Below, in pieces: positions 12,500 through 29,600 of a stretch of 64,000 nucleotides of DNA (position 1 is the stretch's first letter; each line of letters opens with the position of its first letter). A program made the position numbers and the translations under genes. The DNA is taken from positions 1 to 64,000 of the forward strand of contig NZ_JAIUDA010000006.1 of the NCBI RefSeq assembly GCF_020179835.1. The letters run 5' to 3'. The notes below the pieces were generated by a model, which had not been told where the DNA came from, did no database searches, and saw only the letters and a list, made by a program, of their open reading frames with translations. Origin of the DNA: Pantoea sp. alder81 (GTDB lineage Bacteria > Pseudomonadota > Gammaproteobacteria > Enterobacterales > Enterobacteriaceae).

Positions 12500-12858
12500 T
12501 TTCCAGCTCCCTTAGGTGTACGGCGCAGAGACCAGCTGTGTGAGCTGATGATGAGAGAGCGATCGCCATAGCCCATCCGGCGTTTCTTCTCCTCCAGCCG
12601 CTGCCAGATATAGTTTTCTGGCTTGCCGCGTTTAAGGCGGGCCATCCAGCGCCCGCCAAACGCAATGAGTAGCAGCGGCATGAGCAGCATCCCGGTCGGG
12701 ATGATGACCCAGCCAACCAGTGGAAAAAACGGCAGACACACCACACCTCCAACCGCTAATCCAATCAATGCCGCCAACCCCAATTCCGGCGTGGTGAAAC
12801 CGCGAAATACGACAGGCTCAGCATTCAGTCGATCGGGTAAGAAACGGATGGTCTGCAT
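12496..12858 (-). CDS. TraL/VirB3-like membrane protein (TIGR03750 type)
   Basis: A 120-residue protein beginning with FLPDRLNAEPVVFRGFTTPEL, the conserved head of the TIGR03750 conjugative-transfer family, followed by two membrane segments (residues ~30-50 and ~53-72) and a basic tail. Its position between the pilin-like and VirB8-like genes supports a VirB3/TraL role in pilus biogenesis. It starts 10 bases after the pilin-like stop. Confidence 0.86.
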   Translation of the reverse strand: MQTIRFLPDRLNAEPVVFRGFTTPELGLAALIGLAVGGVVCLPFFPLVGWVIIPTGMLLMPLLLIAFGGRWMARLKRGKPENYIWQRLEEKKRRMGYGDRSLIISSHSWSLRRTPKGAGK

Positions 12859-13292: not shown

Positions 13293-13535
13293 TTAACTGG
13301 CGAACATCCAGATGCAGACGATCAGTAAAGCCACAGAACGGATAACAAATCGGGCAAGCGCGGCATCCCTGACTTTGGTATTTGCCCAGCCATGCCAGAC
13401 ATCTACCGCCGCCCATGCTGCCCAGAGAAACAGCACGCACAGTAGTAGCCCAACGGATACCAGATACAGAACGCTAATATCGATGTTGCCGGATGCCGTT
13501 TTAAACGCGTTGACCTGCGCGGCGGTCATCGCCAT
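13293..13535 (-). CDS. small two-pass ICE protein (TIGR03758 type)
   Basis: An 80-residue protein starting MAMTAAQVNAFKTASG with two membrane segments (residues ~20-43 and ~60-78), matching the TIGR03758 family found just before the pilin-like gene in this ICE class. It overlaps the RAQPRD gene by 10 bases. Function unknown beyond conjugation. Confidence 0.84.
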   Translation of the reverse strand: MAMTAAQVNAFKTASGNIDISVLYLVSVGLLLCVLFLWAAWAAVDVWHGWANTKVRDAALARFVIRSVALLIVCIWMFAS

Positions 13536-13864
13536 AGCGGACGGCCTCGCGTGTAGTCGCCGCTGACCTTGCCGTAATCCAGCGGCTGCGCACGCGAAGG
13601 CTGCGTATAGCGGTCAATGCCAGCACGCATGGTGTTGAGGTCTTCGTTGGCTTTTTTGTAGTCGAACAGGTAACGGCGGCGGTTATTGGGATCGGATTGC
13701 GCGGCGACAGTGCGGGCACGGTCGAGGGAGAGCTGGACTTGATCGAGCAGGCGTTGAGTGGTGGCTAGTTCGTCGAGTTCTGAGCAATATGCATTTCCAG
13801 TGAAAATTAGAAGAGAGATTGCCCCGATGTTCGCAGCCAGACTTGGTTTTCTCATTGCATTCAT
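13526..13864 (-). CDS. RAQPRD-family ICE protein (TIGR01690 type)
   Basis: A 112-residue exported protein with a signal peptide (~residues 1-28) and the hallmark helix LDRARTVAAQSDPNNRRRYL. The RAQPRD family is conserved in PFL_4669/PFGI-1 class ICEs next to the pilin cluster; its biochemical role is unknown. No good ribosome binding site precedes the ATG. The gene normally sits next to TIGR03747, which here is 5.6 kb away, so its native upstream sequence was probably replaced by the cargo block. Confidence 0.85.
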   Translation of the reverse strand: MNAMRKPSLAANIGAISLLIFTGNAYCSELDELATTQRLLDQVQLSLDRARTVAAQSDPNNRRRYLFDYKKANEDLNTMRAGIDRYTQPSRAQPLDYGKVSGDYTRGRPLWR

Positions 13865-13967
13865 TAGAAGATCTCATGATATGATGTGGTCAACATGAGA
13901 TTGTGATATTTCCAATAAAAAGTCCGTGAATAATTAAATGTTAAAATATAAAATTTGATAGGTGATT

Positions 13968-14528
13968 ATGAATACAAAAAAACTATTAAAGGCTCTAGTT
14001 TCATACAAAACAATATCTTTGTTCATTCCCACTATTTTAGCATTGTATTTTGGATTTCATCCTTTTTCACCTAGCAATGAAAAAACAGGTTTTCTAATTG
14101 GGCAGTGGCAATATGATTATAACTACATCAATGAAGGAATGACGGTGAAGGTAACTGGGAATACAACGTATTTCAAAAACGGAAAATATAATTCAATTGC
14201 CAACATGACTCTTCAGAGTGAAAAATCTTTCGATATTACTTGCCACTTAAATGTGGCTGGATTTTGGGACGAATTTGATGAAGACATCACTACAACTACT
14301 CAGGATCTGGTCTTATCAACTAATTCTTTAAAGCTGAACGGTTCAGAAGTCGGTGGTTATGATATTTGCAATGGTGGTAATAAAGCCACTACAGGTAAAA
14401 GCACCCTTGTGGCTGTAGGTCAAAGTCAATCTTACAGAAAAATTTCAGCAAGTAAGGATGAAGTAATCTTGCTAGCACATAGCTCTGTTGGAGATGACTA
14501 CAAGATATACATGAAAAAAATAAAATAA
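13968..14528 (+). CDS. hypothetical exported protein in cargo block
   Basis: A 186-residue protein I do not recognise. An N-terminal hydrophobic segment (residues ~15-30) is a signal anchor; the rest looks beta-rich (GFLIGQWQYDYNY..GMTVKVTGNTTYF) and has two Cys, as in small lipocalin-like periplasmic proteins, which is only a guess. AGG lies 5 bases before the ATG. It is AT-rich compared with the ICE backbone and divergent from RAQPRD, consistent with recent acquisition. Confidence 0.6.
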   Translation: MNTKKLLKALVSYKTISLFIPTILALYFGFHPFSPSNEKTGFLIGQWQYDYNYINEGMTVKVTGNTTYFKNGKYNSIANMTLQSEKSFDITCHLNVAGFWDEFDEDITTTTQDLVLSTNSLKLNGSEVGGYDICNGGNKATTGKSTLVAVGQSQSYRKISASKDEVILLAHSSVGDDYKIYMKKIK

Positions 14529-14532
14529 AAAC

Positions 14533-15183
14533 TTATCTGTTTTCTAAGAACCTTTTTGCAGGAGCAATGAGGGTTATCGAGTTAGCTTTCTTACCATAAT
14601 GAAACATTCCTGCGGCACAAATTATTGGTGCAGTAATGTTCACAATTAAAGAAATTAGAACAGATATACCACTATCTATTGTAGCAGTTCTTATTAGGCT
14701 CTCAGCGTCATTATTTAAAAAGAAAGTAGATGATAATCCAAAGAAGATAACAGCGAGAAAATATAGGAAGATCATCAAAAACAAGTAAAAATTCCTCTTC
14801 AAGCTTATGTCCTTGCCATTCTCCCAACCAGAGTTAGCAATGACTTCAATCCCATCACTTCCTGAAATAAGAGTGAAAGCATCAACGTTTCGCCTAACCA
14901 TCAGCAGGTTATTGACAGCTTTTAGAGGGGTTGGATGGCTCATCAGAATAACTATTTCAGTGAATAGGATATTATCGGTTTTATAAATCTTAGAAAATAA
15001 GTATTCGACGGAATATTTATTTGGCGAATCTTTCTCTAACTCTTTCATCATTTCCAGCATTAAACCGCTTTCATCTTTTCTTATGCTGTTTCTGTATACT
15101 AAATAGCTAACCGCTGCTGCGGCGAAAGGTATGATGATAGCACTGATAGTATTCATACAAGATATCCATAATAGTAAAAACAT
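14533..15183 (-). CDS. hypothetical four-pass membrane protein in cargo block
   Basis: A 216-residue protein with hydrophobic segments near residues 5-28, 130-150 and 170-195, and a soluble middle containing a coiled region (LMLEMMKELEKDSPNKYSVEYLFSKIY). I cannot assign a family. An in-frame ATG at codon 10 is an alternative start. It is convergent with the 186-aa gene and only four bases separate the two stops. AT-rich, so probably accessory. Confidence 0.6.
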   Translation of the reverse strand: MFLLLWISCMNTISAIIIPFAAAAVSYLVYRNSIRKDESGLMLEMMKELEKDSPNKYSVEYLFSKIYKTDNILFTEIVILMSHPTPLKAVNNLLMVRRNVDAFTLISGSDGIEVIANSGWENGKDISLKRNFYLFLMIFLYFLAVIFFGLSSTFFLNNDAESLIRTATIDSGISVLISLIVNITAPIICAAGMFHYGKKANSITLIAPAKRFLENR

Positions 15184-15216
15184 TAACGTATCTTTTTTTC
15201 TGCCTCTCTGCCATAC

Positions 15217-15275
15217 CGGCTTGTCTGCTGACGACAGCGCACATGGTCAAGCTTTGCACGCTGTCGTCCAGCTTA
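15217..15275. repeat. 59-bp hairpin repeat, copy 1
   Basis: This segment and 19429-19487 are the same element in the same orientation, differing at about seven positions. It contains a stem: left arm ACGACAGCG (15231-15239) pairs with CGCTGTCGT (15259-15267), extended outward by GCTG and CAGC with one bulged C. In copy 2 the stem reads ACTACAGCG/CGCTGTAGT, a paired (compensatory) change. The two copies bracket four unknown genes. Confidence 0.8.
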
Positions 15276-15334
15276 AAGATAGTAGTATGAGCAGAGCTGG
15301 TATTTAGATTTTTGAGGGTAAGAACGCGATTATC

Positions 15335-15362
15335 CGGCCTTCACTACATGTAGTGAAGGCCG
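15335..15362. terminator. 28-bp perfect palindrome downstream of the 110-aa gene
   Basis: The arm CGGCCTTCACTACA is followed directly by its complement TGTAGTGAAGGCCG. It lies 18 bases after the stop of the minus-strand 110-aa gene. A T-run is absent, so it may be a cruciform or protein-binding site rather than a classical intrinsic terminator. Confidence 0.55.
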
Positions 15363-15379
15363 TAAGGGATTAACACAGA

Positions 15380-15712
15380 TTAAAACCATTCATCGTCTTC
15401 ATAGTCGGATGAAGAAGGATGAGCAGTAAGACAATCAGTATCGACCGCGATGCGGTATGCACCATTATCATTGCGGATGCTGAGATCAAATTCTGTAATC
15501 CGATGATTCATTTCCTCAAGTTCAACTAGCACATCGAAGCCATACTCCTGGTTAAAGTAGATGTATAACCCACGATACCCCTTTTCTCCGTCGTAATTTC
15601 TCACGCCGGTTTCTTCAAGTCCAAACTCACGAGCCTCAACATCGTACGATTCAATCAGTTCATCAGTGCTGGAGTGACTGACATGGACTGTCATGCTACC
15701 AGTTAATTTCAT
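15380..15712 (-). CDS. hypothetical acidic protein of a two-gene cargo unit
   Basis: A 110-residue, strongly acidic, soluble protein (ends SSSDYEDDEWF) that I do not recognise. I chose the ATG at 15712 over a TTG five codons earlier because GAGG precedes it at usable spacing; that GAGG overlaps the stop of the 463-aa gene, so the two are an operon. Small acidic partners of this kind are common as immunity or inhibitor subunits, but nothing in the sequence proves that. Confidence 0.6.
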   Translation of the reverse strand: MKLTGSMTVHVSHSSTDELIESYDVEAREFGLEETGVRNYDGEKGYRGLYIYFNQEYGFDVLVELEEMNHRITEFDLSIRNDNGAYRIAVDTDCLTAHPSSSDYEDDEWF

Positions 15713-15723
15713 TATTTTTTTCC

Positions 15724-17115
15724 TCAACGCATCAATTTAAGGTCTAGCGCGGACTCTAGGCGGGCACATTCGTCATACATTACAGGAACAATGTCTTGAT
15801 GAAATTGCTGCAGCTGGACGTAATCAAGTCTCAACAGCTTCCGAATAAAGAAGGTGCGATAAGTCCATGAGAGCTTTCTGCTGAGACAATACCCCGACAT
15901 TTGAGCACTAATATCAGACTCAAATCCCTCCCAGCAACTCATCACGCTAAAAATATTGCCGACATATTTGCGCAGCTCCCCATGCAGTTTTCTCTCATCA
16001 AGCACTGCAATCGCTCTTGAAGCCAGTTCATTAAAATCCTTCCGATAGATAAGGTTGCCCATATCCATCAACGCGCTGTAAATGGCCAGCCCCTTAGTCG
16101 TCCCTCCCCGGCGAAGTAGCTGAAGGCTTAGAGGTGAGTTATCTTCATTTTTCGCATAGCGTACATAACGTACAAAATCGGCGACACGCCCAAGGTATTT
16201 GGGATCCATGTTCTTTTCTAATTGAGCACGCCAGTTGCCCCCCGCGCTTCTTTCAAGCGCGTGAATGACAGCAATACATGTCGCGATCATCATTTCTTCA
16301 CTACCTGCCTTTGGCGATGAGAAAGATTCCTGGTCTTTACGCCAATGCAAATATGCTGAGACGCTACTTTCGAACTCTTCACTCTCTTTGATGAAATACA
16401 TACCTTCATTGATTAGGACGTGTAGCCCTGCGTTCTTGCACACGTGCTTATAGAAAGCCAGCGTGTTTTCTTCATCCGCAGCGGAGTGAGTATTCACCGT
16501 GTATTTTTCCAGTACTGTATCAATAATCCTATCAAGAAACTGGAAGGTGTCCGACTGACCGGTCAGATAAGTTGCATCCGGAGCATCATAATCATTATCA
16601 ACACGAGGCTTCATACGCAGTATTTCGACGACCATGCTTTCCATAGCACCCGCCGTTTCTTGTGCAAGACGCATAAAATTGCCGTGATTCGCAATATAGG
16701 TCTCAAACATCTCAGAGGCGATCGCGCTGTAATGCTGCCTGTCGTCATGGAAATCGTAATAGCTCAATGAGTAGTAAGCAGGATCATCTTTCAAAACGTA
16801 TGACTTACGCCATTTTTTGGCCAACACGTTGAGAGGTGCCATCAGGAGAACAAGACGCCTGTCGCTCTGCGTATTTTTATGGTTTGAATATTGTACCCTT
16901 GCGATCTCTGGGCCGAGCAGAGAACGTACAGAGTTACGATGATTTTTAAGGTCATCCACCTCCTTATAAGATTGTCCGGTTTTAAAATGTGGCGCCAGGA
17001 TTGCCATAGCACAATTTATCTCATCACGAAGAGCATCTTCTGTGGCAAGCTCAGGCTCCTGCCCGAAAAGGGCCAGGTGGTCATATATAACGCTTTTAGA
17101 AACGTGATCAGTCAT
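15724..17115 (-). CDS. large hypothetical protein of a two-gene cargo unit
   Basis: A 463-residue, mostly helical soluble protein with no family I can name. It has no signal peptide, Walker motif or evident nuclease motif; paired charged residues and Trp/Tyr occur throughout. The ATG at 17115 is preceded by AAGGAG at good spacing, and an upstream TTG/GTG extension is not needed. It is followed after 11 bases by the acidic 110-aa gene. The pair sits in an AT-richer cargo segment bracketed by hairpin repeats, a setting typical of phage-defence or other accessory systems. Confidence 0.65.
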   Translation of the reverse strand: MTDHVSKSVIYDHLALFGQEPELATEDALRDEINCAMAILAPHFKTGQSYKEVDDLKNHRNSVRSLLGPEIARVQYSNHKNTQSDRRLVLLMAPLNVLAKKWRKSYVLKDDPAYYSLSYYDFHDDRQHYSAIASEMFETYIANHGNFMRLAQETAGAMESMVVEILRMKPRVDNDYDAPDATYLTGQSDTFQFLDRIIDTVLEKYTVNTHSAADEENTLAFYKHVCKNAGLHVLINEGMYFIKESEEFESSVSAYLHWRKDQESFSSPKAGSEEMMIATCIAVIHALERSAGGNWRAQLEKNMDPKYLGRVADFVRYVRYAKNEDNSPLSLQLLRRGGTTKGLAIYSALMDMGNLIYRKDFNELASRAIAVLDERKLHGELRKYVGNIFSVMSCWEGFESDISAQMSGYCLSRKLSWTYRTFFIRKLLRLDYVQLQQFHQDIVPVMYDECARLESALDLKLMR

Positions 17116-17148
17116 ACTATATCTCCTTATTGATGTCGTTGATCTCAT

Positions 17149-17828
17149 GATACTGAAACGGCCTGCTGAGTCAGGGATGCAAACTTATATTCCTTAGAAT
17201 GTGCCCCAAAATGACTTACAACATGCAAATGCTGGGCATTGTGTAGTGGACTGAGTATGGGATCATGTGCCCATGACAAATCGTCAGTCCCGCCTCTTAA
17301 GATACCGGAGGTAACGCTTAGCAGATTGCGACCGATGACCAAGCCCACTGCATATATAGAAGGACATTCATTACAAATGTGTAGTGCATGCTAAAAATAC
17401 AGAATATCGCCTATCATAGGCTGGATGTTTAAATAGAGAAAATGTCAGTATTGGATAATTAAGGGAATATTCAGCCGCTTTAGCGCGAGATTAAATGACC
17501 TGCTCCCCATTAACTCACACAAAAATTGAATTGGAATGTCCGTTGTACGCTCATAACTTCACTACGGCAGTTGAGTGTCAAGAGCGGAAGTTACTAATTT
17601 CGGCATATACTTATCCATGAGAGACAAGTTATATAAAATGTCAGATATGAAAATTTAAGCAATGCCTCCAGTAAAATTATAAATATACACTTTTCATTTA
17701 AGAAAAATCATCATGCAAAACACCAATAAACATTAATCAATCAAAAATGATAGGTATTTTATTTTTATGAAAAATTTCACAATGGCCATTCTCTACTCCA
17801 TTAATGATTATTTTAATTCTGCTAACTT
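17149..17828. other. long AT-rich intergenic region
   Basis: About 680 bases with no convincing gene. A 67-codon open frame at 17145-17348 (minus) lacks a ribosome binding site and looks like chance. The right half (17640-17828) is very AT-rich and may contain promoters, but I see no clear -35/-10 pair or RNA structure. Confidence 0.5.
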
Positions 17829-18179
17829 TCAATTGCCGTATTGTTCTTTGGAGGCTAAATATGCTGTATTTCCTGCTTTTTCAGTAGTAATACTATAGCC
17901 GCCATCGACTACACCATTTATAGGTACTGGTTTTACGATGGTATTTTGTAGTTCCAGTGGTCCGTTTTGCAAATTTTCTACAACTTTATTATTTAGTCCG
18001 GTAAAAAGAGGCCCAACTGGTTTATACAAAGCGTCTATATCTGTTTTCATTGCAACAATGCGAGAGGGGGCTTTGATAAGAACTTGAGCCAAATCAAAGG
18101 CCTTCTTAGCATTATTAATGGTGGATAGAGAAGACATCGCAAAGGTATTTGGTGTCGAAAGAAATACTAAAATCAGCAC
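17829..18179 (-). CDS. hypothetical small secreted protein
   Basis: A 116-residue protein, probably started by GTG at 18179 (AGGA nine bases upstream), giving a short signal peptide LILVFLSTPNTFA. The first in-frame ATG falls just after that peptide. The mature part (NNAKKAFDLAQVLIKAPSRIVAMKTDIDALY) is helical, and the C-terminal half is rich in Gly and Asn. No family recognised. An ATG about 30 bases upstream is out of frame, so either GTG is real or the signal sequence carries a frameshift. Confidence 0.5.
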   Translation of the reverse strand: MLILVFLSTPNTFAMSSLSTINNAKKAFDLAQVLIKAPSRIVAMKTDIDALYKPVGPLFTGLNNKVVENLQNGPLELQNTIVKPVPINGVVDGGYSITTEKAGNTAYLASKEQYGN

Positions 18180-18315
18180 GCAGGGAAATCCTAATTTCGT
18201 TCTTTATAATCATATCCTTATATGCTATAAAAATATCTCACGGCGTCCTGTTGGGCGTTTATTATGTCCTTTAGGGAAGAGCTTAATGCTGGCAGCAGGT
18301 TAGGAATCAGGCTAA

Positions 18316-19236
18316 TTAATGGGTGAAAGTTTTCATGAGCAGATGAATTAAACTAAACATGCGATGATATAGGTACTCAATATGATCGCTCTCTTGAATT
18401 TTTACCTGATTCATTTCAGCGTGACGTATGAAATATTGATTACCAACGTCGGTCAAGTACTTAGCTTCATCTTCCAAAAGATTCCGAAATTCAGGTCTAT
18501 CGGTTGCTTCATCAAGTAACTGTGTAACTGATCTTTTTTTATTTGACGGGTTGTGAATACTCTTCAGTCGCTCCCAAAAGTCCCAGAGATCTTTCAAAGC
18601 GTCATAGCGAACCTGAACATCAAAATTAACGATTTTAGAATTCGCGCGAGCAAGTATTATCTTTAACTCAACTTCCGCAGGTACATTCACTGTGGACATT
18701 ATTTTAACTAATTCAGGGCTAAGAAGTCGAATAATTTCTCCTGTTTTCTGAAGCTCGTAGGCCATACCATTACGTGCAAAAATGACATTAACTCTTTCAT
18801 TAAATTCATTTCTGCCAGCATCAACATCGAAGTCGTCAATATGAGTGTGACCGTAATAAGGGTGGTAATCATTTCCTTCAATAGGAAGAGCAACATGCTT
18901 ATAGCAAAATTGAAGTAAATCCATAACGTCCAGATAGTCTGGAATAAACGTAATTTGTGTTCTTGATCTGTAGCCATATCGGCCTATATCTTCAGGATCA
19001 ACACCCAATGGCCATCCTAAATTTGGTATTTCCGACTGTAGCGCAGCTTTGAAAGTGTCTTCATTTGTACCAATACACCCTCGTCCGTCAGGGCATTCTT
19101 CTGGAAAGTTTTTCCCAAAGTAACCTTTATTTACTAGAACATTTATGTACGAGACAAGCCCATTCCATACGGTCATAGAGACATCATTGTTAGTTCTCGA
19201 TACAGAACCTTTCTCTTTATCGCTAAAATATTCCAC
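18316..19236 (-). CDS. hypothetical protein, possible defence-related C-terminal helical domain
   Basis: A 306-residue soluble protein. The C-terminal segment (YFIRHAEMNQVKIQ.. IEYLYHRMFSLIHLLMK) resembles the end of uncharacterised proteins often found in defence islands that carry HEPN-like helical bundles, but I cannot confirm a catalytic R-x4-6-H motif. A Cys/Gly segment (CPDGRGCIG) near residue 48 might bind metal. It is in the same direction as the 463-aa gene and within the same repeat-bracketed segment. Treat any function as open. Confidence 0.6.
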   Translation of the reverse strand: MEYFSDKEKGSVSRTNNDVSMTVWNGLVSYINVLVNKGYFGKNFPEECPDGRGCIGTNEDTFKAALQSEIPNLGWPLGVDPEDIGRYGYRSRTQITFIPDYLDVMDLLQFCYKHVALPIEGNDYHPYYGHTHIDDFDVDAGRNEFNERVNVIFARNGMAYELQKTGEIIRLLSPELVKIMSTVNVPAEVELKIILARANSKIVNFDVQVRYDALKDLWDFWERLKSIHNPSNKKRSVTQLLDEATDRPEFRNLLEDEAKYLTDVGNQYFIRHAEMNQVKIQESDHIEYLYHRMFSLIHLLMKTFTH

Positions 19237-19428
19237 ACTCGCCCCTGGAAGTTTATGACTTTCCCAAAATCTATGACTGATTCAATTATTGAGCAAGCAT
19301 AATTGAGTGAATGTGGTGAAATCAATGGTTAAAACTACCTAAACGCGCATTTCCGCTTCTCGCTCATAACAGTCATTTAAATCGACAACATTTTCATAAT
19401 TGGATATGAATCTGCCGCGCCGCGACAG

Positions 19429-19487
19429 CGGCTTGCCTGCTGACTACAGCGCACAAAGTCGAGCTTTGCACGCTGTAGTCCAGCTCA
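19429..19487. repeat. 59-bp hairpin repeat, copy 2
   Basis: Second copy of the element at 15217-15275, same orientation. The stem is ACTACAGCG (19443-19451) with CGCTGTAGT (19471-19479); here an additional inner stem CAAAG/CTTTG closes the loop. Its right edge touches the stop codon of the TIGR03747 gene, marking the junction between conserved ICE backbone and cargo. Confidence 0.8.
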
Positions 19488-20249
19488 TATATATTTCTTG
19501 AACGAAGCCGTCAGCACCGCCAGCGCCATTCCCAGCATCAGCGCCGCAGGCAGCAACAGCAGATTAGGGTACACAGCCGATGGCCACGACAGATACACCA
19601 TGCAGGGAACATAAAACGCGGGTTTAACGAAGCGTTTGGCATGGTGATAGACAAAGCTGGATTCATACGCCGCACCATAGCGCCGTAGATCTCGCCGCCC
19701 TAAACCATCAACCACTGCAACCAGCACCACCATCAGAAACAGCGGTATTGAAAGCACCAAAATAGTTACGCGAATCAGCGTCACCACAGCGACATACACC
19801 GTCGCCAGCAGATATTCCTGTAGCGCCGATGCCAGCCAGCGGCTACCGGCACTTAATCCGGCAGCAACTGCATTACCACCGCTTTCCATTGCCTGATTTT
19901 GCTGCGCGATCCAACCCTGCAGGCCGCTATCGACAACCAGCCACTGATAAACCTGAGTTACCCAGGCAGTGACCGTCACCGTTGGCTGTGACAACAGCAA
20001 GCTGCGCGTGAACTCCGTGGAGAGATAGCCGCTCTCAATCTGCATCACCTGCTGGCTATGCGCCGCACCTTGATCTGGCCAGAAGAATGCAATACCGATG
20101 TACTCCATTACTAGGCTAAAAAACAGCGAAGCCAGCAGCATGCCAATCAGCTTCCACGGCCATCCCCATAACAGATTAAACAGAAAGCCATGCTCTTTAG
20201 GTTGCTGAACGCGAGCTGGCGGCGCTGAAGTATTTGGTGGTGGCATCAT
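19485..20249 (-). CDS. ICE membrane protein (TIGR03747/DUF4400 type)
   Basis: A 254-residue integral membrane protein. After a Pro-rich N-terminus comes LLWGWPWKLIGMLLASLFFSLVMEYIGI and then three further hydrophobic segments near residues 145-175, 200-215 and 225-250. This matches the PFL_4697/TIGR03747 family, always next to TraD. Its start overlaps the traD stop by 4 bases. The gene ends within the hairpin repeat. Confidence 0.86.
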   Translation of the reverse strand: MMPPPNTSAPPARVQQPKEHGFLFNLLWGWPWKLIGMLLASLFFSLVMEYIGIAFFWPDQGAAHSQQVMQIESGYLSTEFTRSLLLSQPTVTVTAWVTQVYQWLVVDSGLQGWIAQQNQAMESGGNAVAAGLSAGSRWLASALQEYLLATVYVAVVTLIRVTILVLSIPLFLMVVLVAVVDGLGRRDLRRYGAAYESSFVYHHAKRFVKPAFYVPCMVYLSWPSAVYPNLLLLPAALMLGMALAVLTASFKKYI

Positions 20250-22330
20250 TCACCTCCCGGCGGTTCTGCGCCAGCAGCACCAGACCACCATGCTTCACTG
20301 GTGCGGTAATTGCGGCGCATCTCAGCAGCGATCTTCTGCAGGCTTTCTGGCATCAAATCGGTTTTATCAGCAGCAGGCAGCGGCATGCGAATCTTCCACA
20401 GCTGGCCGCCTTCCAGCAGCGCGAACGCCTGGCCTTTGGGCAGGTTGATGATGTCAGCCGGAGTTAGCATCGGCGTTTTCACCATACTCACACGGTCCTG
20501 AGTGTTGGAGGTGAAATCGGTGCCTTGCTCCTGGTTGGTGATATCGGTGTAACCCGAAACCAGCGTTTTGGAATACACATCCACTTCAGGCAGCTGACTG
20601 GTTAGCAGCTCGGCGGTGCGGTTCTCACGTACCCGCAGCATGATCAGCGTGTTGAAGTTACCCGTGACCTGCGCGGCTTTAGCGCTGCTGCCAATGCGCG
20701 CCTCAATATCAGAAATCGTTTGGGTGTAAGCCGTCACCTCAATGCCCGCGCCTCCGCCTTTGTTAATCAGCGGAATGAACTCATCGCCCATCAGCTCATT
20801 GAACTCGTCGCAGTGCAGGCTGATCGGAAGTTTGCCGTCGCCATTCTCCGGCAGGCCGTCATTGATGCCGTGCTTATAGATATGGCCCGCGATACTCACC
20901 AAATCGGCGAACATACTGTTGCCAACGGCGGCACCGACTTCACTGTCTGATAGCGCATCCAGCCCGACATAAACGATGCCGCGCTGGCGAATCACCTGTT
21001 GCCAGTCAAATATCGGGCGCGGATCGTAGAGGTCTTCATAGTCAGGCGAGAGCAGCGCAGCCGTTTTTCCGGTGGTGAGTTTTTCCAGTAGCGGTAGCAG
21101 TGAGGCGACGATTTTATCGAAATAGGTTCGGTCATAACGCACTGCAGAACGCAGCCCTTCCAGAATAGGATCGTAGAGCTTTTTACCGGCTTCAGAACTC
21201 AGCGCCAGCTCCATTGCCCAGATGCGCGTGGCGTTCGATTGCCCCTGCATATTGCGCGGCAGATCCTTCTCCTTCAGCACATTGCTGCCATTCTCAATTT
21301 TACTGCGCAGCTCCGGCAGATGCTTATCAACCAGATGTTCCACGTAGCGCTGATAGAGTTCGCCGATGTTGGTGACGTAGCGAAGGATTAGCGAGTAGTC
21401 GGGGCGCTGGCCAAGCGCAACCAGCGCGCGCGTCACGATGTTGACGAATCGCCAGGCGAACTCGCGAAACGCGGCGCTGTTACCCTCAGCGCCCAATTGA
21501 CCTGCAATGCGCGAAGCCACTTCAGACACACGCCCGAAGCGGCCAACGGCGTTGTAACGAGCCGAGATCTCTGGCCAGCCAAGATGGAAAACGTGGAAGT
21601 CATCCTGACGACCGGCGCGGTGCGCTTCAGCCCACATGCGTTTTAGCAAATCGGCATCGCCTTTGGGGTCGAAGACAATGGTGATATTGCCGCGTCGAAT
21701 ATCCTGCGTAACCAGCAATTCTTCCAGCCGTGTTTTGCCCACGCGCGTGGTGCCAACGACTAGCGTATGCCCGACGCGTTCGCGGAGATCCATCGATACA
21801 TCGCGCTCATTCGGTTCAATGCCGTGCAGCGCCGGATTACCGCCAACCGGCGGCAGCGGGCGAACCGGATTCAGCGGTGTATCGGCTGAAATCATCGATG
21901 ACAGCCAGGGCAGAGAATGCTCGGTCGCGCGTTCAAGCCTGCGCGCGTACTGATAGAGCTTCGCTGGCTGCACATACTTTTCGACTTCTGGCCGACGCGT
22001 ATCGAGCAGGCGCTGAGTGTGTTTTTGCTGCCACAGAAAACCTTTCCCCAGGAACAGCCGATGATTGCTCACTGGCACCTGGCGGCTGGTCATCACATAG
22101 CGCGGCAAGCGGCGCAAGTTTCTGCGATACCTGATCACCTGGCATCCCTGACGGGCGCGCACGGCGGCCAGCACCGCAAAGCCGGTTGCGGTGACATAGC
22201 TGACCGATGGCGACAGTGCGACAGCCCAGGGCGCTGCAACGCAAACATAGCTGGCGGTAGCGGCTACCAGCGTGGTGTTGAACTCAACTGCGGGACGCAG
22301 CAGTGCTTCAATAACATAGCGATCGCTCAT
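20246..22330 (-). CDS. traD: type IV coupling protein TraD (TIGR03743 type)
   Basis: A 694-residue inner-membrane ATPase that links the relaxosome to the secretion channel. Two N-terminal hydrophobic segments (residues ~20-60) precede the nucleotide-binding domain with Walker A (VGTTRVGKTRLEELLV, about residue 190) and Walker B (LHCDEFNELMG, about residue 510), followed by AYTQTISDIEARIGS. Length and motifs match the ICE-type TraD family. The Shine-Dalgarno before ATG 22330 is weak. Confidence 0.92.
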   Translation of the reverse strand: MSDRYVIEALLRPAVEFNTTLVAATASYVCVAAPWAVALSPSVSYVTATGFAVLAAVRARQGCQVIRYRRNLRRLPRYVMTSRQVPVSNHRLFLGKGFLWQQKHTQRLLDTRRPEVEKYVQPAKLYQYARRLERATEHSLPWLSSMISADTPLNPVRPLPPVGGNPALHGIEPNERDVSMDLRERVGHTLVVGTTRVGKTRLEELLVTQDIRRGNITIVFDPKGDADLLKRMWAEAHRAGRQDDFHVFHLGWPEISARYNAVGRFGRVSEVASRIAGQLGAEGNSAAFREFAWRFVNIVTRALVALGQRPDYSLILRYVTNIGELYQRYVEHLVDKHLPELRSKIENGSNVLKEKDLPRNMQGQSNATRIWAMELALSSEAGKKLYDPILEGLRSAVRYDRTYFDKIVASLLPLLEKLTTGKTAALLSPDYEDLYDPRPIFDWQQVIRQRGIVYVGLDALSDSEVGAAVGNSMFADLVSIAGHIYKHGINDGLPENGDGKLPISLHCDEFNELMGDEFIPLINKGGGAGIEVTAYTQTISDIEARIGSSAKAAQVTGNFNTLIMLRVRENRTAELLTSQLPEVDVYSKTLVSGYTDITNQEQGTDFTSNTQDRVSMVKTPMLTPADIINLPKGQAFALLEGGQLWKIRMPLPAADKTDLMPESLQKIAAEMRRNYRTSEAWWSGAAGAEPPGGE

Positions 22331-24566: not shown

Positions 24567-26702
24567 ATGTATCTAAAAAGTTTAGTTATTCATAACTTTA
24601 GGAAATTTAGCAATTCTAATAATAAAGTCTGTTTCGTTAAAGCTGGGAAGACTTCACCTGAACAATCACCAGTTGCTGCGTCAACAACAGTAGTCATTGG
24701 AAAAAACAACTCTGGTAAAACAACGATAACAAATTCCTTAGCATTATTATGTTCAGATACAGAAAAATTAAACGGAAATGACTTTAACCATAATTATTTG
24801 AGGCGGATTCTTTCTGCATTTCTTGCATCAGATTTTACAACATACCCTGAAATAAAATTCGAAATGGAGTTCATACTCGATGATATAAATAATGATAGCA
24901 CTAGTAATTTCTCACCATTCATAGATGTATCATCTTTGAGTAGTATCCCAAGAGATGATACCAAAGATACAACAGCATATATAATGATAATCTTTAAAAT
25001 TTATGATGAAGAAATCTTTCGGGATGCAGTGGATGATTTAATTAAAGAAAAAAAAGACAGTGGTTACAATGATAATGAGCTTTTTAGACGTTTTTTAGAT
25101 TTGATATCAGAGACGGAATTTAAAAGAGTCATTAAGAATATAGATAATAAAGTAATTGATAAGGTCAAGGTGAAAAACCTGATAGACCTTCGGATCATTA
25201 AAGTTGCCAATAATATACATGACCAAAGGTTACTAGCAAAATCCTTCAATAGAATTATAAAATTCATGTATGAAAAAAACAAAGATGAACTGAAGAGTAT
25301 TTTGCATCTGGTAGATGGGAACAACCACAGCCTTACAGAAAAAATAAAAGTAAGTCATCAGGATAATGTCGAGTCAGTTTTAAACACAATTATTCTTGAT
25401 GAAAGCCTAGGTATTGAATTAAGAGCTAACTTAACTTTCGATAGATTAATGGGAGATCTCATAACATATGAGCATCGTGATGGCGAAAATCTAATTCCTG
25501 AAGGACAATTCGGATTAGGATATGCGAATCTTATAAATATAATTAGTGAAATAATTGATTATTCCAATAGAAGCTTGCATGAAGAAAAACAGCTTAAAAT
25601 CCAGCTTTTATGCATTGAGGAACCTGAGGTTTTTATGCATCCTCAAATGCAAGTTAATTTCATTCGTCATATTGAAGAGGCTTTGATAAAGATATTAGGA
25701 CTAAACTCTAAAGACATTAGTTCAATTAAAAGTCAAATTGTAGTTACTACTCACTCCTCACATATATTAAATAGTATTATTCATGGGAGCGGGACATTTA
25801 ATGAAATTAATTACATTAATAGCTCAAAAGGAAATAGTGAGAGTGTAATTTTGAACGATAATGATCTTTGTGAGGGGGGTAAGGAATTTGATTACTTTAA
25901 ATTTATTAAAAAACATGTAAAACACCAAGTCCCTGAACTTTTCTTTTCTGATGCAATAATTTTAGTTGAAGGCATAACTGAAGAACGTGTCATAAATTAC
26001 TATATTGATAGAGATACGACCCTAAGTAAAGGAAATATTTCAGTTTTCAGAATTGATGGTGCGCACGGAAAAGTGTATTCAAACCTTCTTAAAAGAATAA
26101 ACATCCCAACATTGATAATCACTGACATAGATTTTAAACGGGATAAATCCCTTTTCAAACAAGTTAAAATACAAGATGATGGTTCGGAGATTACCACTGA
26201 ATATTTCCCGCAGATGGAATTACTGGATGATTCAATCGAAACAACAAACTCTACCTTAACTCATTTCTTAGGAAGCAAAAAAGTTATAAATTTTCCCGAG
26301 TATCACATATCTGATAATATATACCTTGCTTACCAGTTGGAAGAAATATCTCTTGATATACCTGGCGGAAATAAGGCGAGTTATTATGCTACTTCATTCG
26401 AAGAAGCGTTGATTCTTAAGAATTATAGAAATGATTTATTAAGAGGTATTTTATTAAAAGTTGTTGGGAAGGACTATTTAGATATCATTTCAGATGAAAA
26501 GGAAAATCATCACATTCTTGCGATGAATTCATTCAAGATACAGAAAAAGCTAGCAGACAGCAAAAGTGCATTTGCTAACGCTATCATTTATGAATTAATA
26601 ACTAGCGAAGATGTTAAACCAGAATTGCCTTCATACATAATAAATGGATTATCGTGGCTTGGAAGTCAAAAGCGTAAAGTTAGAGGAGGTGACTATGTAT
26701 GA
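24567..26702 (+). CDS. gajA: Gabija GajA-like OLD-family ATPase/TOPRIM nuclease
   Basis: A 711-residue anti-phage endonuclease. The N-terminal ABC-type ATPase begins YLKSLVIHNFRKF and has Walker A GKNNSGKTTI (about residue 45), Walker B LLCIEEPEVFMHPQ (about residue 350) and the switch His in VVTTHSSHI. The C-terminal TOPRIM domain shows the catalytic Glu in AIILVEGITEERV and the Asp pair in LIITDIDF. In Gabija, GajA nicks DNA and assembles with GajB. It is longer than the ~580-residue type member. AAGGA lies 9 bases before the ATG. Strong AT bias and opposite orientation mark it as ICE cargo. Confidence 0.87.
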   Translation: MYLKSLVIHNFRKFSNSNNKVCFVKAGKTSPEQSPVAASTTVVIGKNNSGKTTITNSLALLCSDTEKLNGNDFNHNYLRRILSAFLASDFTTYPEIKFEMEFILDDINNDSTSNFSPFIDVSSLSSIPRDDTKDTTAYIMIIFKIYDEEIFRDAVDDLIKEKKDSGYNDNELFRRFLDLISETEFKRVIKNIDNKVIDKVKVKNLIDLRIIKVANNIHDQRLLAKSFNRIIKFMYEKNKDELKSILHLVDGNNHSLTEKIKVSHQDNVESVLNTIILDESLGIELRANLTFDRLMGDLITYEHRDGENLIPEGQFGLGYANLINIISEIIDYSNRSLHEEKQLKIQLLCIEEPEVFMHPQMQVNFIRHIEEALIKILGLNSKDISSIKSQIVVTTHSSHILNSIIHGSGTFNEINYINSSKGNSESVILNDNDLCEGGKEFDYFKFIKKHVKHQVPELFFSDAIILVEGITEERVINYYIDRDTTLSKGNISVFRIDGAHGKVYSNLLKRINIPTLIITDIDFKRDKSLFKQVKIQDDGSEITTEYFPQMELLDDSIETTNSTLTHFLGSKKVINFPEYHISDNIYLAYQLEEISLDIPGGNKASYYATSFEEALILKNYRNDLLRGILLKVVGKDYLDIISDEKENHHILAMNSFKIQKKLADSKSAFANAIIYELITSEDVKPELPSYIINGLSWLGSQKRKVRGGDYV

Positions 26703-28725
26703 ATTAGACGCAGAAAAAGAAAAGACAGAGCATGAAATAATTGAAAGTATTTACCATTCAATTGATGAGGAAAAGTCATTTTATTTCCAGTCTGGTGCAG
26801 GTGCTGGGAAAACATATGCGTTAGTTAAAGCCATTAAATACGCAGGGCAATTAAGCGCTATTAAGAACAATAATTCATCTAGGAAAATCCTATGTATAAC
26901 ATATACTAACAACGCCACAAATGAAATTGCCGAGCGGTTGCCTTCCTCAGATCATTATTATGTTTCAACTATTCATTATTTTATTTGGGATTTATTGAAG
27001 AACTATAACAAAGAGTTGATTGAAACCCATATTTCATTCCTTGGGGATGAAATAAAAAGATTAGAGTATATGGTTTTTCACGATCCTGATTCACATAAAT
27101 CATATAAAAAATTCAGAAGCCTTTCAGTTAGAGAATTGGATTTCTTAATTGAAAAAATACGCGAAGATAAAATAAATTACTATGAAGTCGCTTTTGGTCC
27201 CGCCGTGCCGTATTGGAGTTATTTAGAATCTGTGATTGGTACGGACTTGTTGAGATCAATCAAGTCCAACAAACAAGATGTTTACGATGCAATAAAAACA
27301 TTACTGACCATTAGGAATTATAAAAAATGTCTGGATTCAATAAAGACTGGTGATCCTAACTATAAGGATATAATTTACAAGGCCAATCAAAATATTGAAA
27401 TACTACATCTAAATATCATTGGGCATGATACATTACTTAAATATGCAAAAATATTATTATTGAAAAACATAGGCTTATCTAGAGTAGTAATTGACGCTTA
27501 TCCTTATGTTTTCATCGATGAGTGCCAAGATACAAACCCAGATATCATTGATTTTTTCTCTGAGATTTATACGTATTCAAAAGGTTCAAGTGACTGCTTT
27601 GTTTTAGGTTTCTTTGGCGATCCGATGCAAACCATTTTCTCGAAAGATATAGTCAAAAACCCATTTTATGAAAGTTTAAATTTAATAAATAAAGATTTTA
27701 ATAGACGGTCATTTGATGAGGTTATAAATTGCATCAATATAATAAGAGGTAGTCATCAACCTATTATCCAAACTTCTATTTATAAAAATAAACAAGGTGG
27801 CAAGGTAAAATTCCAGCAGCTGGGTGAAGACTGTAATGAACAATCAATAATAAGAGATATAATTAATGGACATAAGCGTGAATGGCATTTATCTCCTGAG
27901 AGTTCTTTCGCGTGCCTAGTTCTAAAAAACAAAATGCTTGCCACTTTATGTGATTTTGACAATATATATAGATTGGTTTCTAAAATTTATACAGCCGAGA
28001 ATCCCTCTTATCATAATAAGGTTAATGAGGAGTTTGTAGTTAGGGAGCTTAAGAAGGCGGGTAGACTGGCAATGACCCTTCATAATATTGTGCTCCCTCT
28101 ATTTCTTATTGTTAGGAATAAAAGTTTATCTCTGAGTGAGCTATTTCCGATTGTAAGTAAAAGTCAATTCAGTCTGATAGAGGTTCGTGAAGCCATATCA
28201 TTTCTCCAAGGTTTTTCAAATTGCTCCTTACTTGAATACGTTGAGGGTGTCAGGAGGGATTTAAATGGGTGTGTTTCACCTAAAACTAAAGAAATAATAG
28301 AATCAATATTTCCGAAAAAAATGATTAATCTTAACTCTAACATTAATTCGACCATTTTGGAATTATCTGGTTTTAAACGAGTGGCTGATTGCTCAGTTTT
28401 TTTATCTGAACTTCTTGATATTAATGTTGATGAGTTTTTCAACTGGATGGATTATCTGCATGGTGAGTCAAAACTATCCGGCATTGATTATATGACATGC
28501 CACTCATCGAAAGGTCTTGAGTTCGATAACGTTCTGATTTTCTTGGAGGACTCAATGTTACATGATAAAAACATTTTCTCTGAGCTTTTAACATCTGATC
28601 TTAATGTGACGTTGAATGAAAAGTTAGAAAGGGCAAGGCGTATTTTATATGTGTCAGTTTCGCGCGCTATTAAAAATGCTAGCATAGTATTGTTCTCTAA
28701 AAACAATGTGGACTTCAATACATAA
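26695..28725 (+). CDS. gajB: Gabija GajB-like UvrD-family helicase
   Basis: A 676-residue superfamily 1 helicase/NTPase. Motif I is GAGAGKTYALVKA, motif Ia region CITYTNNATNEIAERLP, motif II VFIDECQDTNPD, motif III FGDPMQTIF, motif V MTCHSSKGLEFDNVLIF and motif VI RARRILYVSVSRA, all in UvrD order. In Gabija GajB hydrolyses nucleotides or senses DNA ends and activates GajA. The start is the ATG at 26695, with GAGGAGGT inside the gajA end, and the genes overlap by 8 bases. It is larger than the ~494-residue reference GajB, with a long insert after motif Ia. Confidence 0.87.
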   Translation: MYELDAEKEKTEHEIIESIYHSIDEEKSFYFQSGAGAGKTYALVKAIKYAGQLSAIKNNNSSRKILCITYTNNATNEIAERLPSSDHYYVSTIHYFIWDLLKNYNKELIETHISFLGDEIKRLEYMVFHDPDSHKSYKKFRSLSVRELDFLIEKIREDKINYYEVAFGPAVPYWSYLESVIGTDLLRSIKSNKQDVYDAIKTLLTIRNYKKCLDSIKTGDPNYKDIIYKANQNIEILHLNIIGHDTLLKYAKILLLKNIGLSRVVIDAYPYVFIDECQDTNPDIIDFFSEIYTYSKGSSDCFVLGFFGDPMQTIFSKDIVKNPFYESLNLINKDFNRRSFDEVINCINIIRGSHQPIIQTSIYKNKQGGKVKFQQLGEDCNEQSIIRDIINGHKREWHLSPESSFACLVLKNKMLATLCDFDNIYRLVSKIYTAENPSYHNKVNEEFVVRELKKAGRLAMTLHNIVLPLFLIVRNKSLSLSELFPIVSKSQFSLIEVREAISFLQGFSNCSLLEYVEGVRRDLNGCVSPKTKEIIESIFPKKMINLNSNINSTILELSGFKRVADCSVFLSELLDINVDEFFNWMDYLHGESKLSGIDYMTCHSSKGLEFDNVLIFLEDSMLHDKNIFSELLTSDLNVTLNEKLERARRILYVSVSRAIKNASIVLFSKNNVDFNT

Positions 28726-29309: not shown

Positions 29310-29600
29310 CCCTGACGGATAAATGCTTTCCGTCAGGAAGCGCGGATAGCTATGCCGCGCTGGCTGGTCAGTACAAAGAACCTCATCACACAGGTGATAT
29401 CCGCATTAAGAGGTTGAGCGGATCGACCACTGCAAAAGCAGCACTTCTCTCAGGTCATGAAGTTTTAGATGGCAACCGCGTAAGCGTCTCTCTCAGGCTG
29501 CTGAAACATTGGCTGGTTGTTGAGACAACAACAATAATGCCGTTCCAGTGTCCTGCCGCTAAAAGCGGATGTCAGCGATAAAGTAGTTTTGCGGGGATGA
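29310..29600. promoter_or_regulatory. leader region upstream of the DUF3577 gene
   Basis: About 290 bases between the terminator at 29601-29631 and the DUF3577 gene. No credible gene: the plus-strand frame at 29291-29581 has no matching family. Because a terminator precedes it, the DUF3577 gene must have its own promoter here, but I cannot place the boxes confidently. Confidence 0.4.

What the first reader, a model, noticed from the sequence alone, without database searches (positions are those of the whole stretch)
15217..19487. Cassette of four unknown genes bracketed by a 59-bp hairpin repeat with compensatory changes
Two direct copies of a hairpin element flank the 110-aa, 463-aa, 116-aa and 306-aa genes. 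The stem differs between copies by a paired change (ACGACAGCG/CGCTGTCGT versus ACTACAGCG/CGCTGTAGT), so the structure is maintained. The segment splits the ICE backbone exactly at the TIGR03747 stop. The element could be a recombination site that builds cargo arrays, or a conserved RNA.
Basis: seen in the sequence. Interest (0 to 1): 0.7.

Follow-up and report, generated by a model that had tools for sequence, protein, structure and literature searches.

The report
Replication-priming hairpins flanking mobile-element cargo
A small hairpin repeated on either side of four cargo genes in a transferable bacterial element closely resembles the site where plasmid ColE1 is thought to start copying single-stranded DNA, and it sits beside a spot where new cargo genes are repeatedly slotted in.

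Summary
The two hairpins are real (83 nt, 82% identical) and form one strongly covarying 20-bp stem. They are not mainly cassette borders. The hairpin is a usually single-copy backbone feature of enterobacterial TIGR03747/RAQPRD-type ICEs and conjugative plasmids, most often 0-29 nt after the TIGR03747 stop (32 of 53) and on the tra strand in 53 of 53. A covariance model made only from ICE-side copies finds, as its best hit in ColE1, the hairpin directly 3' of rop, which I recall as the PriA-dependent primosome assembly site. I infer a strand-specific single-strand initiation site; PriA action is untested. The copies bracket cargo because cargo is loaded beside this site: closely related ICEs are mostly either collinear or diverge at the hairpin's 3' edge, and IS1111-type elements with different passenger genes sit at one position in TIGR03747's last codons in three of three close copies. 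Window copy 1 keeps a TIGR03747 3'-end remnant and a degenerate form of that right-end scar. The cargo slot itself is published as GI-Hotspot 8; one cargo gene is a candidate defence gene.

The parts
15209..15273 (-). Element copy 1: primosome-assembly-site-like hairpin plus 3' tail
   Evidence: R1 79.4 bits, 3.0e-14; fold z -4.63
19421..19485 (-). Element copy 2, starting at the TIGR03747 stop
   Evidence: R1 78.8 bits, 4.1e-14; fold z -4.64
15274..15294 (-). Probable insertion scar: CTGCTCATACTAC then a TIGR03747 3'-end remnant TATCTTTA, directly upstream of copy 1 (minus strand)
   Evidence: sequence, compared with the right-end scars of L010, L035, L095, L103; degenerate, inferred
19485..20249 (-). 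TIGR03747 family ICE membrane protein (DUF4400), left border of the slot in transcription order
   Evidence: NCBIfam 1.1e-92, Pfam PF14348 1.9e-70
13526..13864 (-). RAQPRD family ICE protein, other border of the slot
   Evidence: NCBIfam 1.2e-25
18316..19236 (-). Cargo, 306 aa: AbiJ_NTD4-domain protein, candidate defence protein PDC-S32
   Evidence: Pfam PF18863 3.5e-9, PADLOC 3.9e-49
17829..18179 (-). Cargo ORF, 116 aa, no family found
15724..17148 (-). Cargo ORF, 474 aa (463 aa from the later start), no family found
15380..15727 (-). Cargo ORF, 115 aa (110 aa from ATG), no significant family
14533..15183 (-). Cargo ORF, 216 aa, between copy 1 and RAQPRD; distant homologue at the same place in L049
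13962..14528 (+). Cargo ORF, 188 aa, between copy 1 and RAQPRD; distant homologue beside RAQPRD in L129

Best explanation
The hairpin is a ColE1-type primosome assembly site (a single-strand initiation site) that many enterobacterial ICEs and conjugative plasmids of the TIGR03747/RAQPRD class carry just after TIGR03747. When the strand bearing the tra-sense sequence is single-stranded (after conjugative transfer or during rolling-circle replication), it folds into a bulged 20-bp hairpin with a conserved unpaired tail (AGRCAAGCC, in many copies followed by a GGCGCGTCAG-like motif). I infer that PriA recognises it and loads the primosome to copy the complementary strand. Its immediate neighbourhood is a cargo slot: IS1111-type elements with passenger genes insert into the last TIGR03747 codons just upstream of it, and exchange between ICEs replaces cargo just downstream of it. 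In the window, an older TIGR03747 3'-end/hairpin (copy 1) was displaced by inserted cargo, while a hairpin (copy 2) follows the current TIGR03747; hence four genes between two hairpins. Shown: structure, conservation, strand, position, homology to the rop-adjacent ColE1 hairpin, breakpoints, shared insertion site. Inferred: PriA/priming function, that the tra-sense strand is the transferred one, and the history of this particular cassette.
For: Covariation: 10 of 20 pairs with changes on both sides, 96% of cells paired, 0 of 500 shuffles as high on four of the five measures and 38 of 500 on the fifth; slid controls 28.5-51.3% paired (20 rows of one length class chosen out of the 41 non-redundant rows). 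ICE-side-only model R2 hits the hairpins 3' of rop: ColE1 3.7e-7 as best of 22 listed hits in that record and 7.5e-6 in the joint search, a pBR322-like locus (L023) 3.6e-6, ColE1-like plasmid stretches 3.8e-11 to 4.6e-11. ColE1 is said to contain a primosome assembly site thought to prime the transferred strand (PMC4595007 section 21), and PAS-BH/PAS-BL are named as pBR322 primosomal assembly sites (PMC8392549 figure legend). Position and strand: 53 of 53 elements in loci with ICE genes lie on the tra strand; 32 start 0-29 nt after the TIGR03747 stop and 18 more lie before RAQPRD. 16 of 18 TIGR03747 loci from genome contigs have it. Breakpoints: of 86 locus pairs at least 88% identical upstream, 38 stay collinear to the end of the 4.5-kb stretch compared, 46 break at +56 to +93 (the element's 3' edge), 1 at +136, 1 at +728 (pairs are not independent). 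Insertion site: IS1111-type elements at the same codons in L095, L103 and L148 with different passengers.
Against: No experiment shows PriA action on any ICE copy. That the rop-adjacent hairpin is the mapped PAS rests on my recall of pBR322 coordinates; the primary paper was not held. R1 does not find phiX174 (best E 1) or F (best E 0.94); R2 lists nothing in phiX174 at E up to 5 and in F only E 0.21 or worse, so it is at most the ColE1 subtype. R1 was built with ColE1-type rows, so R1 hits to them are not independent; R2 is. The element was not detected in 5 of 6 further TIGR03747 plasmids tested, where by eye some have a terminator-like hairpin after the gene, so it is not essential to the class and the place may call for an operon end. 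The stem uses many G-U pairs, which also suits an RNA role. Window copy 1's scar is degenerate, and no IS end or transposase is left in the window cassette.
Confidence: 0.65

Rival explanations
1. The hairpin is an RNA element of the tra transcript: it ends or protects the 3' end of the TIGR03747 message (a terminator without U-run, Rho-linked, or a stabilising hairpin).
For: Same strand as tra in 53 of 53 and most often directly after the stop codon; rop has it directly 3' too; G-U pairs are frequent in the stem; ICEs without it can have terminator-like hairpins at that place (by eye).
Against: No U-run: neither copy is listed by the terminator scan of 13800-20300. The unpaired 3' tail is conserved as sequence beyond the stem. 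No Rfam family matches. It persists just before RAQPRD and behind cargo, kilobases from TIGR03747.
Confidence: 0.2
2. The hairpin is itself a recombination site that builds cargo arrays, attC-like, with cargo exchanged by a recombinase acting on it.
For: Homology breaks sharply at its edges: 46 of 86 close pairs at the 3' edge, and 44 listed pairs share a downstream module with unrelated upstream sequence. Tandem copies with different cargo in the window, L035, L095 and L097. An element-plus-bor unit at 5 places.
Against: Usually single copy, also where the TIGR03747-RAQPRD gap is only 236-315 bp (L045, L037, L104). Mapped insertion junctions lie 18 nt or more upstream of it, in TIGR03747 codons. 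L148 has such an insertion with no hairpin detected. No recombinase in the window cassette. Backbone conservation plus homologous exchange gives the same breakpoints.
Confidence: 0.12
3. Ordinary backbone hairpin duplicated once by homologous exchange between two ICEs; neither the IS1111-type elements nor priming has to do with the window arrangement.
For: The window cassette has no IS end or transposase; scar upstream of copy 1 is degenerate; cargo genes have unrelated distributions.
Against: Copy 1 keeps a TIGR03747 3'-end remnant preceded by GCTCATA at the place where five elements in four other loci have the full right-end scar; conservation of the structure still asks for a function.
Confidence: 0.3

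Closest known systems
ColE1/pBR322 primosome assembly site 3' of rop (PAS-BH, factor Y/n' site; place and coordinates recalled, the name PAS-BH seen in PMC8392549)
   Same: Same bulged hairpin, apical CTTGT-like loop and 3' tail AGRCAAGCC...GGCGCGTCAG; same placement just after a stop codon
   Different: On ICEs/large conjugative plasmids beside a tra gene, not beside a replication origin; sometimes two copies around cargo; function untested
sso1 of ICEBs1 (PMC4595007, passages and section 21 seen)
   Same: A single-strand origin carried by an ICE
   Different: In a Bacillus subtilis element and found by similarity to a rolling-circle plasmid sso; no sequence comparison was made here
Frpo/ssi of F and ColIb-P9 (PMC7690428, PMC7736820, passages seen)
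   Same: Folded transferred ssDNA at which complementary-strand synthesis is thought to start
   Different: RNA-polymerase promoter in the leading region (328 bp in F); models R1 and R2 do not find F
GI-Hotspot 8 between traD and RAQPRD in PAGI-2/PAGI-3/LESGI-3 (PMC12629846, passages seen)
   Same: Same slot, defence-rich cargo; also reported there in Serratia, Salmonella and Klebsiella
   Different: The passages seen mention no hairpin and no insertion mechanism; the two Pseudomonas plasmids tested here lack the hairpin
IS1111-type elements guided by a seekRNA (PMC11187229, passages seen)
   Same: DEDD transposase, subterminal inverted repeats (13 nt here), noncoding region downstream of tnp with stretches matching the target
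   Different: Here natural passenger genes lie between tnp and the right end, and the target is the 3' end of a conjugation gene

Membership tests
ColE1-type primosome assembly site (PriA-dependent ssi) | Strand-specific folded hairpin conserved by structure | tested here: met
ColE1-type primosome assembly site (PriA-dependent ssi) | Sequence/structure homology to the rop-adjacent ColE1/pBR322 site | tested here: met
   ICE-side-only model R2: ColE1 3.7e-7, pBR322-like L023 3.6e-6, ColE1-like stretches about 4e-11
ColE1-type primosome assembly site (PriA-dependent ssi) | Supports PriA-dependent priming on ssDNA | not testable with these tools
   needs a bench assay
ColE1-type primosome assembly site (PriA-dependent ssi) | Lies on the strand that becomes single-stranded (T-strand) | not tested
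   oriT and relaxase not located; only the constant strand relative to tra is shown
phiX174-type PAS by sequence | Detectable similarity to the phiX174 genome | tested here: not met
   best E 1 with R1 unfiltered; nothing listed with R2 at E up to 5
Intrinsic terminator | Stem followed by a T-run | tested here: not met
   not listed; sequence
Recombination site / attC-like cassette border | One copy per cassette, absent without cargo | tested here: not met
   single copy with varied cargo in most loci, also with gaps of 236-315 bp (L045, L037, L104)
Recombination site / attC-like cassette border | Cognate recombinase | tested here: inconclusive
   none in the window cassette; other loci not scanned systematically
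IS1111-type guided element (the L095/L103/L148 insertions) | DEDD_Tnp_IS110 + Transposase_20, subterminal inverted repeats | tested here: met
   (Pfam run on L095 and L103; L148 annotated IS110 family)
IS1111-type guided element (the L095/L103/L148 insertions) | Noncoding guide matching its target | tested here: inconclusive
   matches at comparable offsets, and L148 differing in step with its target, but short: 15 to 258 of 500 shuffles as good in 13 of 15 settings, no 7-nt match in the other 2 (both L095); in the cross-test the own target is not always the best

The most novel reading that the evidence does not exclude
A subfamily of IS1111-type elements is naturally programmed, by a guide RNA, for the conserved last codons of the conjugation gene TIGR03747. 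It carries passenger genes and acts as a guided cargo loader beside a fixed ssDNA-priming hairpin. Repeated loading, loss of the transposase and exchange between ICEs leave arrays of the form TIGR03747-hairpin-cargo-scar-hairpin, of which the window is one.
Probability: 0.38. Interest if true: 0.78.

Novelty: new variant of a known kind. Interest (0 to 1): 0.6.

Why it matters
Conjugative elements arrive as single strands, and how ICEs of the TIGR03747/RAQPRD class start the second strand is, as far as I know, open. A fixed, covarying ColE1-like priming hairpin at one place in their backbone makes this directly testable. The same junction shows physically where a known defence-gene hotspot takes up cargo, and it offers naturally cargo-bearing IS1111-type elements aimed at a conjugation gene. 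The searches made of the open-access library listed no title reporting such a site in these ICEs; I saw capped listings and passages, and most subscription papers are not held.

Tried and rejected
Rejected or weakened: intrinsic terminator (not listed); known Rfam RNA; phiX174-type site by sequence; copies on plasmid F; four genes travelling as one cassette (the two genes searched did not); hairpin as the insertion target itself (L148 has the same insertion without a detected hairpin). The 83-nt copy 2 had no match in the E. coli collection (20,395 records, E 0.01). In the class sample only the window's own genome matched (1 of 331), so it seems centred on Enterobacterales; searches over 40 genomes score few candidates per genome, so misses are likely.

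Limits of the counts. The 58 loci are the window, 13 of the 18 loci (5 dropped as the same contigs as other rows), 38 of the 40 loci (2 dropped for the same reason) and 6 plasmid loci. Several hits were never fetched with wide flanks. Related ICEs count separately (L016, L042, L048, L107-L111 and L113 are about 95-100% identical), so independent cases are fewer. In one search most near-matches to the end motifs lie away from the element and look like chance. The printed list was cut; its tally of downstream-sharing pairs is 43, the fuller listing with a slightly different filter has 44. One search used only rows of one length class. The 5-nt offsets tried were my choice because the exact IS ends are ambiguous.
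Full report
Observation. The window holds two direct copies of an 83-nt sequence, 15199-15281 and 19411-19493, 82% identical. On the minus strand both fold into a long hairpin far better than shuffles (RNA z -4.63 and -4.64; DNA z -4.25 and -4.71). The 3' tail GTCAGCAGRCAAGCC occurs without mismatch only at these two places in the window. Copy 2 starts at the stop codon of TIGR03747. The four ORFs lie between the copies, and two further cargo ORFs lie between copy 1 and RAQPRD.

Distribution. Similar hairpins were first found on four conjugative plasmids and then in genomes with covariance model R1 (12 rows: two window copies, six from large plasmids, four from ColE1-type sequences): 16 of 61 genomes of the genus and 35 of 392 of the family at E 0.001, 8 of 394 of the order at E 0.01, 1 of 331 of the class, the window's own. 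The window genome has the two copies, one weaker copy on contig C2 just before the RAQPRD gene of a second tra region of this type, and a 25-bit match on C30 that may be chance.

Place and strand. Of 18 TIGR03747 loci in genome contigs, 16 have the hairpin soon after TIGR03747; L039 has none and L046 ends inside the gene. In a table of 58 loci with 60 elements, 53 elements lie in loci with recognisable ICE genes. All 53 are on the tra strand: 32 start 0-29 nt after the TIGR03747 stop, 13 lie further on but before RAQPRD, 5 have RAQPRD downstream with no complete TIGR03747 3' end matched upstream, and 3 are other cases. Seven loci show no ICE genes in the stretch fetched. Six further TIGR03747 plasmids were tested: only Salmonella pSGI4 has it; in ICEhin1056, pUM505, pWW0, V. 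tubiashii p123 and pPag2 it was not detected (best of these 12.6 bits, E 0.28, in pUM505), and by eye some of them have a terminator-like hairpin after the gene.

Structure. Over 20 rows of one length class, 10 of 20 pairs change on both sides and 96% of cells pair. No shuffle of 500 reaches the observed value on four of five measures (38 of 500 reach it on the count of further pair types), and slid partners pair in 28.5-51.3% of cells. The one-base bulge and the unpaired tail are conserved, and in many copies a GGCGCGTCAG-like motif follows.

What it is. Window copy 1 weakly matched hairpins in small E. coli plasmids (E 0.05-0.6), where in the three looked at it sits directly 3' of rop. ColE1 has it in the same place with the same two tail motifs. 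To avoid circularity I built model R2 from ICE-side copies only. It finds the rop-adjacent hairpin as the best hit of ColE1 (3.7e-7), ColE1-like stretches at about 4e-11 and a pBR322-like locus at 3.6e-6, but not phiX174 or F. From recall, this stretch is the pBR322 H-strand primosome assembly site. [quoted passage not shown] I therefore infer a ColE1-type single-strand initiation site. PriA action and T-strand identity are untested.

Why two copies. Among locus pairs at least 88% identical upstream of the element, 38 of 86 stay collinear to the end of the 4.5-kb stretch compared, 46 lose identity at +56 to +93, the element's 3' edge, 1 at +136 and 1 at +728. Another 44 listed pairs share a downstream module but not the upstream side. 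Tandem copies with cargo between them occur in the window (4.2 kb), L035 (1.7 kb), L095 (2.2 kb) and L097 (3.1 kb). L049 shows a single-copy arrangement resembling the copy-1 side of the window: TIGR03747, hairpin, a 34% homologue of the 216-aa protein, RAQPRD.

A loading mechanism. In L095 and L103 the TIGR03747 stop region runs into ATGAGCGCCTCCC, and the element is preceded by RGGAGGCGCTCATTTCAT plus a remnant of the TIGR03747 3' end. These are 13-nt inverted ends around an IS110-family transposase (PF01548 and PF02371) and passenger genes: PALP in L095, HxlR and a flavodoxin-like gene in L103. A third copy, on a Pantoea plasmid, has the same ends at the same codons with a GNAT and an M15 peptidase gene. 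Counting the query itself, these are the only copies at least 90% identical in 392 family genomes and 72,556 plasmid records. The elements measure 2445-2710 nt, against 1422 and 1427 nt for two compact relatives without passengers. In their noncoding regions, stretches at comparable offsets match the right and left target flanks, and in L148 they differ in step with its target. One by one the matches are short and weak (15 to 258 of 500 shuffles as good in 13 of 15 settings, no 7-nt match in two settings for L095), and in the cross-test the own target is not always the best, so guidance is suggestive only, in line with the seekRNA model (PMC11187229 passages). The same right-end scar precedes the element in L010 and in L035 copy 2. 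Window copy 1 is preceded by TGCTCATACTAC and TATCTTTA, a degenerate form. Its origin by such an insertion is plausible, not shown.

Cargo. The 306-aa protein has an AbiJ_NTD4 domain (3.5e-9) and matches PADLOC's PDC-S32 (3.9e-49); the other three reach no family's cut-off. The slot corresponds to the published GI-Hotspot 8, flanked by traD and RAQPRD (PMC12629846 passages).

Verdict. The hairpin is best read as a new location of a known kind of site, a ColE1-type primosome assembly site, fixed in an ICE backbone at the border of a known cargo hotspot; the bracketing is a by-product of cargo loading next to it. The cargo-bearing IS1111-type elements aimed at TIGR03747 are the most novel thread.

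Noticed in passing
L118, L119, L125, L127, L130 around the element: A unit of about 0.88 kb (element plus an opposite-strand Lambda_Bor lipoprotein gene), 88.6-97.4% identical between pairs, sits at 5 different places; a GTCCGCT...AGCGGAC-like hairpin is at the left end in all 5 and at the right end in 4 (Bor domain run on L118 only).
   Followed up: partly
L149 (G000 contig C31:5575-6339): The window's own genome has a partial 76% relative of the IS1111-type transposase whose noncoding region also resembles a TIGR03747 3'-end guide, but no TIGR03747 was found in the 14 kb fetched.
   Followed up: partly
window 29376-29533, minus strand: STAXI RNA (RF01728, 75.9 bits) in the same ICE; possibly another ssDNA/RNA element.
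   Followed up: no
window 24567-28725, plus strand: Gabija defence pair (GajA 1e-207, GajB 7.3e-279) in the same ICE.
   Followed up: no
L035 about 12524-12600; L129 8719-8783: Run of GTGCT repeats directly after the second hairpin copy near the contig end; apparently the same genome (G401) has a third hairpin on contig C22 beside RAQPRD.
   Followed up: no
L095 12202-12525: CdiI_2 immunity-like gene (5.6e-14) directly after the second hairpin, also after the hairpin in L096.
   Followed up: no
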